Positions 28,541 to 30,948 of a DNA stretch of 35,061 bases are shown here, in pieces. Source of the DNA: an uncultured Prevotellaceae bacterium (GTDB lineage Bacteria; Bacteroidota; Bacteroidia; Bacteroidales; Bacteroidaceae); assembly GCA_945833925.1 (NCBI GenBank), contig CAMAFX010000021.1:1-35061 (forward strand), in the 5' to 3' direction. A program made the position numbers and the translations under genes. Within the stretch, counting starts at the first letter, position 1, and every line of letters starts with the position of its first letter. Below the pieces are notes generated by a model, which made no database searches, was not told the origin of the DNA, and saw only the letters and a list, made by a program, of their open reading frames with translations.

Positions 28541-28628
28541 GCCCAGATGGTGGAATTGGTAGACACGAGGGACTTAAAATCCCTTGGCCATTGCGGCCGT
28601 ACGGGTTCGAGTCCCGTTCCGGGCACCA
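28541..28628 (+). tRNA. tRNA-Leu (anticodon TAA), CCA encoded
   Basis: A class II tRNA of 88 nt including CCA. The anticodon arm is AGGGA-CTTAAAA-TCCCT (anticodon TAA). The long variable arm is GGCC-ATTGC-GGCC and the T arm ACGGG-TTCGAGT-CCCGT. Acceptor GCCCAGA pairs with TCCGGGC except for an A5-C68 mismatch. The D region GGTGGAATTGGTAGACAC is typical of leucine tRNAs. Confidence 0.96.
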
Positions 28629-29234: not shown

Positions 29235-29342
29235 AAATCACGCAGCGTAATTTTAAAAATCACGGTGCGTGATTTCAAAAATCTCGGTGCGTGATTTGGT
29301 CAACTCACGCGCCGTGATTTTCCGACTCACGCTACGTCGCTT
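29235..29342. repeat. phased palindromic array 2 (five units, 22-bp period)
   Basis: Five palindromes with 3-nt centres lie at 29235-29253, 29257-29275, 29279-29297, 29302-29320 and ~29324-29342. Their centres are 29244, 29266, 29288, 29311 and 29333 (spacing 22, 22, 23, 22). Unit 2 is perfect: AAATCACG-gtg-CGTGATTT. Units 1, 3 and 4 each have one mismatch, and unit 5 is degenerate (ACTCACG-cta-CGTCGC). The array lies ~420 bp beyond the 3' end of the RAYT-like transposase and shares centres and spacing with the array at 7305-7411. Confidence 0.85.
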
Positions 29343-29536
29343 CAGAATAGTTCCTGCGAGTCCGATTTTGCGCCTTGTCGTGTAAAGTAATTTCGCATAA
29401 AGAAGCAATAGAAACAGAAGAAAAAGATTTTCCCCCACTCCCCCTTTATAAAAAGAAGAAAAAGACAAAGAAGAAAGGGGAGGGGAGGAGTGCGCGCGTG
29501 TACGCACGAGGTTTTGGCGCTATGCGCTATGTATAT

Positions 29537-29553
29537 CCCCCCCCCCTTTTTTT
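29537..29553. repeat. homopolymer tract C10-T7
   Basis: Ten C followed by seven T, preceded by TATGCGCTATGTATAT, in a 420-bp gene-free stretch (29343-29763). The rest of that stretch is purine-rich (29400-29490) or AT-rich and shows no gene. Such a tract is prone to length change. Confidence 0.9.
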
Positions 29554-29763
29554 AGTAAATGTTTGTAGAAATGCTAAGCTTCCTGATTTTTTTCGATAAA
29601 TTTCCGTACGAAAACAGAAAATGGTGGTATAATTGTAAGTGAATAGTTTTTTGAATCAAAAAAAGAATCTTTATATGGCTATGGAAAACAAGGAGCATGC
29701 AACAATTGAATATGGTTTTCAGAAGGCGGAGTACACGCCGAGAGACGCAGTGGGAGAGACATT

Positions 29764-30948
29764 CTACTTCCACCAATCATCACTCACGCCACTGATGATG
29801 CGAACCAATTCATTCATCGCAAGACACATCTCACGACTGATGGAGGGGATGCGCCCACCATGCTCGTCACGTTGCTCGGGCTGATACTCGTACTTCCAAC
29901 ACGTCATCTGCACATGGCGGTTTTCTGCCGTCGAATAAAAGGCCTTGCCTCCAGGCTTGTAACGGTCACTGAAACCGTTATCCATAAGTTCGATGAAAGG
30001 CAACTGCTCCTGCATCAGTTGTTTCATGATATCACGCTCCTTGGGACTGACGAATGCGCTTACCACCACAGCCCCTTCACGTGCCACCCGCATAACGGAT
30101 TCTTTCTGCTGTTCGAAAAAGGCAGCATCAGCACGATGACAGATGAGCGACACCTTACGTTCGGCAGACAGCAAGGCACGATTGCCCACATAGTCAAGAG
30201 CAAGAAGCCGGGAATCTCCAGGCTGGCGCTTAAGACGCTGGCTCACCTTGCCCTGCAACGACAGGCACTTCTCGGGATTACACCCAATCCTGGGATCTGC
30301 AGCGACGGCAGCAAGGGCGCGCTCTAATGTCCAATTCCAGGACTGTCCATTACGCACAACACGGAAGCGATCAGGCCTGGATCGTGTAACAAGGCGTTTA
30401 CGAGGATTGTCGCGTATGTACTGACGCTTTATCTCTATCTCCTCTTCTGTCACCGCCTCCACATCGTTATAGCCACGCACCATGAGGGCAGGACCACGGA
30501 AGGAACGCGTGTGGTCCTTGTCCTGCCATTCCGGCGCACGAGCGCCTTTTACATATGTCATCTCGCGCCACGGTATGCCCAGCGTGTCCCAATAGCCATG
30601 CGTGCATCCAACCATGAATCCACAAACGATTTGTCCAAGATGCTTCTTGTTCTCTGCTTTCAGATGTACCAATCCATGCACGTGCTCTGGCATTACTTGA
30701 AACTCTATGTTTTCTATCCCTGGATATATAGAAGGGCTACGTTTCCAACTCTCTTCTACTTTTCGTCCCAGTTCTGTCAGTACACACCGTGGGGCATTCT
30801 CGCTGCCATCTTCTGCATTGTGGTCGCCGGTGATGTATCCTAATACTGGGGCTTCTCCTCTTGTGTTTAGGGTTATATGAAACCACCCCTCTGTGTAATC
30901 GTTGAGGGGATTGCGCTTTAGGGCATCGGGAGTTGCTGCCTCTTTCAT
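29764..30948 (-). CDS. HUH/Y1 (RAYT-like) transposase fused to a DprA/LOG-like Rossmann domain
   Basis: A 394-residue intact protein. The N-terminal half (~15-200) is a Y1_Tnp/REP-associated tyrosine transposase-like domain. GWFHITLNTR is the first strand, the HUH metal motif is MPEHVHGLVHL (H89, H91), and the catalytic Tyr (Y177) lies in the family motif QYIRDNPRKR. Such enzymes nick single-stranded palindromic DNA through a 5'-phosphotyrosine. The C-terminal half (~250-394) is unrelated to known RAYTs. LDYVGNRALLSAERKVSLICHRA, REGAVVVSAFVSPKERDIM and LPFIELMDNGFSDRY follow the DprA/LOG Rossmann pattern (GN-x2-LL, strand-loop, VVSGF/VSAF, nucleotide or ssDNA pocket). The longest ATG start is 30948. 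Coding-like sequence extends 16 codons further to an ATA at 30996 (INKSLSLTPEQIAKIR), perhaps a lost start. No terminal inverted repeats are visible, so it is probably single-copy and domesticated. Confidence 0.8.
   Translation of the reverse strand: MKEAATPDALKRNPLNDYTEGWFHITLNTRGEAPVLGYITGDHNAEDGSENAPRCVLTELGRKVEESWKRSPSIYPGIENIEFQVMPEHVHGLVHLKAENKKHLGQIVCGFMVGCTHGYWDTLGIPWREMTYVKGARAPEWQDKDHTRSFRGPALMVRGYNDVEAVTEEEIEIKRQYIRDNPRKRLVTRSRPDRFRVVRNGQSWNWTLERALAAVAADPRIGCNPEKCLSLQGKVSQRLKRQPGDSRLLALDYVGNRALLSAERKVSLICHRADAAFFEQQKESVMRVAREGAVVVSAFVSPKERDIMKQLMQEQLPFIELMDNGFSDRYKPGGKAFYSTAENRHVQMTCWKYEYQPEQRDEHGGRIPSISREMCLAMNELVRIISGVSDDWWK

What the first reader, a model, noticed from the sequence alone, without database searches (positions are those of the whole stretch)
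29764..30948. RAYT-like HUH transposase fused to a DprA/LOG-like domain
Seen: one intact frame carries the HUH motif (HVHG), the YIRDNPRKR tyrosine motif and, after ~50 linker residues, a GN-x2-LL...VVVSAF... Rossmann-type segment. Known: RAYTs nick REP palindromes on ssDNA; DprA binds ssDNA and loads RecA. Inference: the fusion could couple palindrome cleavage with ssDNA binding or RecA loading, or use a LOG-type nucleotide pocket to control transposase activity. I recall similar long transposase-annotated proteins in Bacteroidales, but not a described function.
Basis: partly seen in the sequence, partly recalled or inferred. Interest (0 to 1): 0.75.

Follow-up and report, generated by a model that had tools for sequence, protein, structure and literature searches.

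The report
Palindrome-cutting transposase fused to DprA-like domain
A bacterium, probably of the gut order Bacteroidales, carries one of a whole family of genes that join a transposase domain of the kind that cuts DNA hairpins to a domain resembling DprA, a protein that binds single-stranded DNA; both halves are conserved, so the protein likely nicks a single strand with one half and is predicted to hold it with the other, a pairing we found no description of.

The parts
29764..30948 (-). Fused RAYT/DprA-like gene, 394 aa
30379..30900 (-). HUH-Y1 (RAYT-like) half, about residues 17-190; H89, H91 and Y177 invariant in 90 of 90 (A1)
29767..30375 (-). DprA-like half, structural match residues 192-394; G255, E304, N379 invariant in 90 of 90 (A1), R272 in 89 of 90
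30205..30351 (-). About 50-residue, mostly helical insert (about residues 200-248) before the GN motif, present only in the longer members
   Evidence: alignment; model
29236..29319 (+). Array of four 17-bp palindromes (AATCACG-NNN-CGTGATT type), 22-bp period, 3' of the gene; possible substrate, not shown
   Evidence: folds as ssDNA hairpins, z -7.6
29410..29640 (+). Repeated module between array and gene, also beside the arrays on contigs C7 and C9

Best explanation
The gene encodes a two-domain protein of a Bacteroidales family in which an HUH-tyrosine (RAYT-type) domain likely nicks and rejoins single-stranded DNA at hairpins while a C-terminal DprA-like domain, which ends before the dimer and RecA surfaces of DprA, is predicted to hold the cut or flanking single strand. 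Shown: the fusion, both folds in a confident model, conserved HUH/Y residues, a conserved DprA-like core, purifying selection on both halves, full-length matches only within one order in the surveys made, and one branch for the 42 fused N halves tested. Inferred: the chemistry (metal-dependent nick with a 5'-phosphotyrosine at Y177, recalled from known RAYTs and IS608), ssDNA binding by the C half (R272 aligns with DprA R115; R372 with K202), and the substrate (arrays of short palindromes are a candidate in this genome). It would act as a resident, domesticated ssDNA editor rather than as a self-copying insertion sequence.
For: Intact frame. AlphaFold model pLDDT 87.5, pTM 0.76; N half to RAYT 4er8 and IS608/ISDra2 TnpA, C half to ShosA and DprA. 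C-half profile vs stand-alone Smf/DprA-SLOG family: 98.3%, E 2.4e-14 (repeated), itself a sub-threshold PF02481 match. Unfiltered set A1 (90 rows): H89, H91, Y177, G255, E304, N379, R372 90 of 90, R272 89 of 90. Diverse set A2 (42 rows): Y177, E304, N379 42 of 42, R272 38 of 42, R372 35 of 42; H89, H91 and G255 are also 42 of 42 but its frames were picked with an HxH and a GN/GD filter. dN/dS: N half 0.06-0.16 in 7 of 8 pairs (the eighth saturated), C half 0.05-0.14 in 8 of 8. N halves on one branch, 100/99, against 18 one-domain RAYTs. The four intact copies in the genome are only 25-39% identical, unlike an active insertion sequence.
Against: I found no biochemistry on it. The direct profile match of the C half to canonical DprA is weak (hhalign probability 5-16%, E 0.002-0.0003); it reaches 73% only with the stand-alone family added. 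The GSR and GID signatures of DprA are changed to CHR/CSR and (P/G)(K/G)E. The WQ motif found in 18 of 18 one-domain RAYTs is matched in only 2 of 42 fused proteins, so catalysis or target choice may differ. The palindrome is absent, or at a single site, in all 20 other genomes with window-clade genes. In the stand-alone relatives R372 falls on a glutamate, and hhalign does not pair N379 with their RN asparagine, though MAFFT does. dS is near saturation (pS 0.49-0.78), so the ratios are rough. Catalytic geometry in the model was not measured. Two of the 21 named-genome loci (L040, L041) have no open frame over the match.
Confidence: 0.55

Rival explanations
1. The C half is a sensor: an SLOG-type pocket that binds a nucleotide or a protein partner and switches the HUH nuclease on or off, without itself holding DNA.
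For: The best fold match is ShosA, a DprA-like antitoxin; PADLOC PsyrA matches 2 of 42 members (best E 4e-4) and the stand-alone relative (3.2e-8). In E. coli TnpA-REP the authors suggest a regulatory role for the last C-terminal residues (PMC8266576 section 24).
Against: The DprA ssDNA-contact arginine is kept in 38 of 42. No toxin-like partner was seen to recur within 5 kb (25 copies; neighbours compared by BLAST, only 6 of them scanned against Pfam).
Confidence: 0.25
2. One reading: the C half is a full DprA that delivers cut ssDNA to RecA.
For: DprA-like fold.
Against: The sequence ends before the SpDprA dimer residues 249-275 and at least E265 of the RecA-binding triad (PMC4066776 passages). 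The genome has its own full DprA on contig C22.
Confidence: 0.05
3. Defence-type or mobile-element-borne ssDNA nuclease: the protein cuts and holds invading or replicating foreign ssDNA, with the DprA-like half as detector.
For: DprA homologues act as antitoxins in shosTA and other toxin-antitoxin systems, and a DprA-phosphoribosyltransferase pair protects against phages (passage in PMC9122126). A Vsr nickase gene starts just downstream in L022 and L024. DUF3987/BT4734-like genes lie within 5 kb of 4 of 25 copies (two of them syntenic) and Bro-N (phage antirepressor type) genes near 3 of 25. Patchy distribution.
Against: No conserved operon: Vsr beside 2 of 25 copies examined. No PADLOC match for the window protein at E<=0.1.
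Confidence: 0.12
4. Dead relic or selfish one-off without function.
For: One of five copies in the genome (C9) is a remnant; L040 and L041 have no open frame over the match.
Against: dN/dS about 0.05-0.16 in both halves; conserved catalytic residues in 90 of 90.
Confidence: 0.03

Closest known systems
RAYT / TnpA-REP (class 2 Y1 HUH, e.g. E. coli 4er8)
   Same: Fold of the N half, HUH, Y-x-x-N-P, few non-identical copies per genome
   Different: E before HxH in 18 of 42 (D in 22, N in 2), WQ motif lost, 200-residue DprA-like C half; no subclass in the table passage and section 11 that I read of PMC6006769 (median lengths 148-325 aa) has such a domain
Short stand-alone Smf/DprA-SLOG proteins (about 158 aa, PF02481-like, e.g. 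P0160 of Gracilimonas amylolytica)
   Same: Same domain by profile (98%); G, CxR and E positions shared
   Different: Stand-alone, not joined to a nuclease; I know of no tested function
DprA (S. pneumoniae, H. pylori)
   Same: Rossmann-type fold, GN..LL lead-in, ssDNA arginine, N of RNR
   Different: No GSR/GID, ends before the dimer/RecA segment, no further C-terminal domain
ShosA / PsyrA DprA-like antitoxins
   Same: Closest solved fold (ShosA 8zva)
   Different: No toxin partner gene seen, fused to a nuclease
IS200/IS605 TnpA
   Same: HUH-Y1 fold
   Different: No near-identical copies, much longer

Membership tests
RAYT / TnpA-REP | Y1-type HUH fold | tested here: met
RAYT / TnpA-REP | HxH motif and catalytic Tyr followed by NP | tested here: met
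   H89, H91, Y177 90 of 90 in unfiltered A1; in A2 Y177 42 of 42, N181 35 and P182 34 of 42
RAYT / TnpA-REP | Conserved W[QE] motif | tested here: not met
   Pattern in 18 of 18 one-domain RAYTs, 2 of 42 fused
RAYT / TnpA-REP | Curated profile cut-offs (PF01797, NF047646) | tested here: not met
   Window 12.2 of 23 bits and 16.8 of 80 bits; at E<=0.1 NF047646 matches 38 of 42 members (best 1.6e-11) and PF01797 22 of 42
RAYT / TnpA-REP | Flanking REP palindromes dispersed in the genome | tested here: inconclusive
   3 of 5 loci in this genome, 1 of 49 elsewhere; palindrome dispersed only here
RAYT / TnpA-REP | Cleaves and joins cognate ssDNA hairpin | not testable with these tools
   needs biochemistry
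DprA | Rossmann/SLOG fold | tested here: met
DprA | ssDNA-binding arginine of the GSR motif | tested here: met
   R272 aligns with SpR115; 89 of 90 and 38 of 42
DprA | Dimer residues 249-275 and RecA triad E235/D243/E265 of SpDprA | tested here: not met
   Protein ends at equivalent 224 (profile) or 247 (last structural pair); E235 and D243 are absent only by the profile alignment
DprA | PF02481 match | tested here: not met
   Not among the matches (window, E<=10) or (42 members, E<=0.1)
Short Smf/DprA-SLOG domain family | Profile similarity and G / CxR / E / N signature | tested here: met
   98.3%, E 2.4e-14; G, C, R, E positions agree in both aligners, N only in MAFFT
IS200/IS605 insertion sequence | Near-identical multiple copies | tested here: not met
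   25-39% identity between the four intact copies

The most novel reading that the evidence does not exclude
A new class of RAYT in Bacteroidales that carries its own DprA-derived ssDNA clamp: one protein that recognises palindromic hairpins, cuts one strand, and keeps hold of the freed strand until it is rejoined, spreading and shaping 22-bp-period palindrome arrays specific to each species.
Probability: 0.25. Interest if true: 0.78.

Novelty: new variant of a known kind. Interest (0 to 1): 0.6.

Why it matters
What RAYTs, domesticated bacterial transposases, do for the cell is open. A family with a DprA-like domain built in, under purifying selection, gives a direct handle: separable domains, named residues (H89, H91, Y177, R272, E304, N379), and several divergent copies plus candidate palindromes in one genome. 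It also gives a fused context to the numerous short Smf/DprA-SLOG proteins (2657 relatives), and would suggest that they work on single-stranded DNA.

Tried and rejected
RecA loading by a full DprA domain: rejected for the missing segment. LOG-type nucleotide enzyme: no LOG-family structure appeared among the rows shown, which says little; nucleotide sensing is left open as a rival. APS kinase match (E 0.024) and SPT5, LacI and S3 matches: weak, judged chance. Palindrome as a family-wide substrate: 1 of 49 copies outside this genome (L058, 5' side, 27-bp period) has an array within 800 bp, against 5 of 387 control ORFs (Fisher p 0.51); within this genome 3 of 5 (p 5.5e-5, but post hoc, and window and C9 share one module, so not independent). 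The array detector allowed at most 60 bp between units, so the 65-bp CRISPR-like array beside L038 was not counted. One of 19 one-domain RAYT loci (L143) had an array. The second pattern, TACGATANNTATCGTA, has 9 and 9 matches against 9 and 9 for its control; only the four units at C12 form an array. De novo search for hairpin families in G151, G152 and G153 (about 408, 413 and 242 kb sampled): no type in more than 4 1-kb bins, and none of the listed bins of the recurring types lies in the gene locus; the same method on 400 kb of G000 saw its own known family in only 2 bins, so power was low. Conserved operon: none found; recurring neighbours are DUF3987/BT4734-like (4 of 25), Bro-N (3 of 25), Vsr (2 of 25) and genes shared by L031 and L035, which look syntenic; a few further families recur in 2-3 loci and were not identified. 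Not used: the second structure job, the viral fold library, two paper searches. Print searches; of these I saw listings (at most 20 rows each) and, in papers, the passages and sections cited; no listed paper was seen to describe this fusion. The library lacks most subscription papers.

Rows dropped: A1 took 89 of the 120 listed homologues, chosen by hand mainly for full cover, plus the window. A2: 52 loci examined (21, 29, and 2 stretches of the own genome), 47 frames passed a filter for at least 300 aa, HxH and GN or GD; 6 near-duplicates were then left out. Checked afterwards: L028, L030 and L035 were lost only because GN reads GA, GS or GF; their frames are intact and by eye keep the HxH, Y and C-half positions; L040 and L041 have no open frame over the match; L065 is cut short (frame of 149 aa).

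Full report
Observation. The minus-strand frame 29764-30948 encodes 394 aa without a stop. Pfam and NCBIfam give nothing above their cut-offs; the best is REP_Tyr_transpos at 16.8 of 80 bits. The first protein search found 695 clusters at E<=1e-3; the 120 listed are mostly full-length, and the two that carry a name are 'hypothetical protein'.

Sequence bridge. A profile of 40 C halves (A3) searched in 296 genomes of the phylum matched 2 at E<=1e-6: the own genome (5 places) and G358, where the match is a stand-alone 158-aa protein, E 9.5e-13. That protein is a PF02481 match below cut-off (24.2 of 29.6 bits), has 2657 relatives at E<=1e-5, several of the 120 listed named DprA/Smf by their sources, and its profile matches A3 at 98.3%, E 2.4e-14 over 105 columns (98.7%, E 3.5e-15). 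In a joint MAFFT alignment G255, C270, R272, E304 and N379 fall on G9, C23, R25, E58 and N119; hhalign agrees for the first four but not for N379. Against 29 canonical DprA proteins the C half alone is weak (probability 5% and 16%, E 0.0022 and 0.00034), and 73%, E 3.7e-6 when pooled with the stand-alone family; the N half gave no match.

Residues. The register puts R272 on SpDprA R115, R372 on K202 and N379 on N209 of RNR. R115 and its equivalent HpR52, and the basic patch with K202 (HpK137), bind ssDNA (passages of PMC4066776 and PMC4489622). In A1, picked without a motif filter, H89, H91, Y177, G255, E304, R372 and N379 are 90 of 90 and R272 89 of 90. In the diverse A2, Y177, E304 and N379 are 42 of 42, R272 38 and R372 35 of 42; H89, H91 and G255 are 42 of 42 too, but its frames were filtered for HxH and GN/GD. 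Three of the loci lost to the filter keep H, Y, G, R, E and N by eye. In the stand-alone family R372 falls on E, so R372 is the weaker link. The protein ends at SpDprA-equivalent 224 (profile) or 247 (last structural pair), before the dimer residues 249-275 and E265 of the RecA triad.

Selection and spread. Nei-Gojobori dN/dS for 8 pairs: N half 0.06-0.16 (7 pairs; 1 saturated), C half 0.05-0.14 (8 pairs); synonymous sites are near saturation, so the values are rough. In 151 genomes of the family 30, the own one included, have matches at E<=1e-20. In 295 genomes of the order 13 have matches at E<=1e-28; in 12 of them, from 7 families, the match includes the C half, while G618 matches only in the N half. 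In 296 genomes of the phylum 119 match at E<=1e-10; the matches listed outside the own genome stop by residue 228, in frames mostly of about 130-280 aa (one of 523): one-domain RAYTs (the list is cut, sorted by E-value). The N halves of 42 fused proteins and 18 one-domain RAYTs (from 19 loci; 1 gave no frame that passed my filter, which asked for HxH and a Y motif) separate on one branch with 100/99 support, compatible with a single fusion, not proof of it. The W[QE] pattern is in 18 of 18 one-domain and 2 of 42 fused. The table passage and section 11 of PMC6006769 list no subclass of this length with such a domain.

Own genome. Five loci: window, C12, two on C2, and a remnant on C9 that keeps only the end of the N half and the C half. 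The four intact ones are 25-39% identical.

Palindromes. AATCACGNNGCGTGATT with at most 2 mismatches: 69 and 74 matches by strand in the genome, control 0 and 0, in arrays of 22-bp period; the 18 places that I examined (one a single palindrome) all lie outside the ORFs called by a simple rule. The family is confined to this species in the samples: with 1 mismatch 41 and 41 here against 0-1 per strand in 138 other genomes of the genus, 150 of the family and 20 genomes that hold window-clade genes; the samples overlap. An array lies 3' of window, C9 and C12; the C12 array is a different palindrome found as an array only there, and AATCTCGGTGCG half-sites also lie 3' of C12. In flanks: 4 arrays at 54 copies against 5 of 387 control ORFs (p 0.016); in this genome 3 of 5 (p 5.5e-5); outside it 1 of 49 (p 0.51). 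These tests were chosen after seeing the data. The array folds as ssDNA with z -7.6. So the palindromes are a candidate substrate here, not a family hallmark.

Neighbours. Of 25 copies examined within 5 kb (some cut by contig ends), 2 have a Vsr nickase gene just downstream, 4 a DUF3987/BT4734-like gene and 3 a Bro-N gene (one or two members of each group were scanned, the rest grouped by BLAST); the last two kinds are, as I recall, common on phages and mobile elements, so some copies may sit in such regions.

Mechanism. From known RAYTs (PMC8266576, abstract and section 24) the N half is expected to cut folded ssDNA with the tyrosine. The C half adds a DprA-type core that keeps an ssDNA-contact arginine but not the dimer/RecA part. 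I therefore prefer cut-and-hold over RecA loading. The regulatory-sensor rival remains serious, because the nearest solved fold is an antitoxin (ShosA) and a regulatory role has been suggested for the C-terminal tail of E. coli TnpA-REP.

Noticed in passing
L022:1843-2604 and L024:7354-7956: A Vsr mismatch-nickase gene (PF03852, E 4.4e-30 and 1.5e-32) starts 13 bases past the last codon of two close homologues (82-83% identical); none was seen beside the window copy.
   Followed up: partly
L038, about 480-1460 bp 5' of the gene: CRISPR-like array: 16 copies of a CGCCCCTCACGTAGGGGCG palindrome at about 65-bp spacing.
   Followed up: no
L234:1483-1959: Stand-alone DprA-like gene lies between a gene without PADLOC match and a candidate-defence gene (PDC-S18, E 2e-153).
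   Followed up: partly
L094:3500-3740 (contig C2): About five direct repeats with a 47-bp period overlap the 3' end of one paralogue.
   Followed up: no
L157, L164, L166, L177, L181, L201: Unrelated palindrome arrays in the sampled Bacteroidales genomes: 6 of 8 also have a period close to 22 bp (about two helical turns), cause unknown.
   Followed up: partly
L036:5033-5776, L030:1776-2267, L031:2286-4514: Bro-N and DUF3987/BT4734-like genes recur near some copies of the family.
   Followed up: partly
window 28541-28628: tRNA-Leu (taa) about 600 bp from the palindrome array.
   Followed up: no
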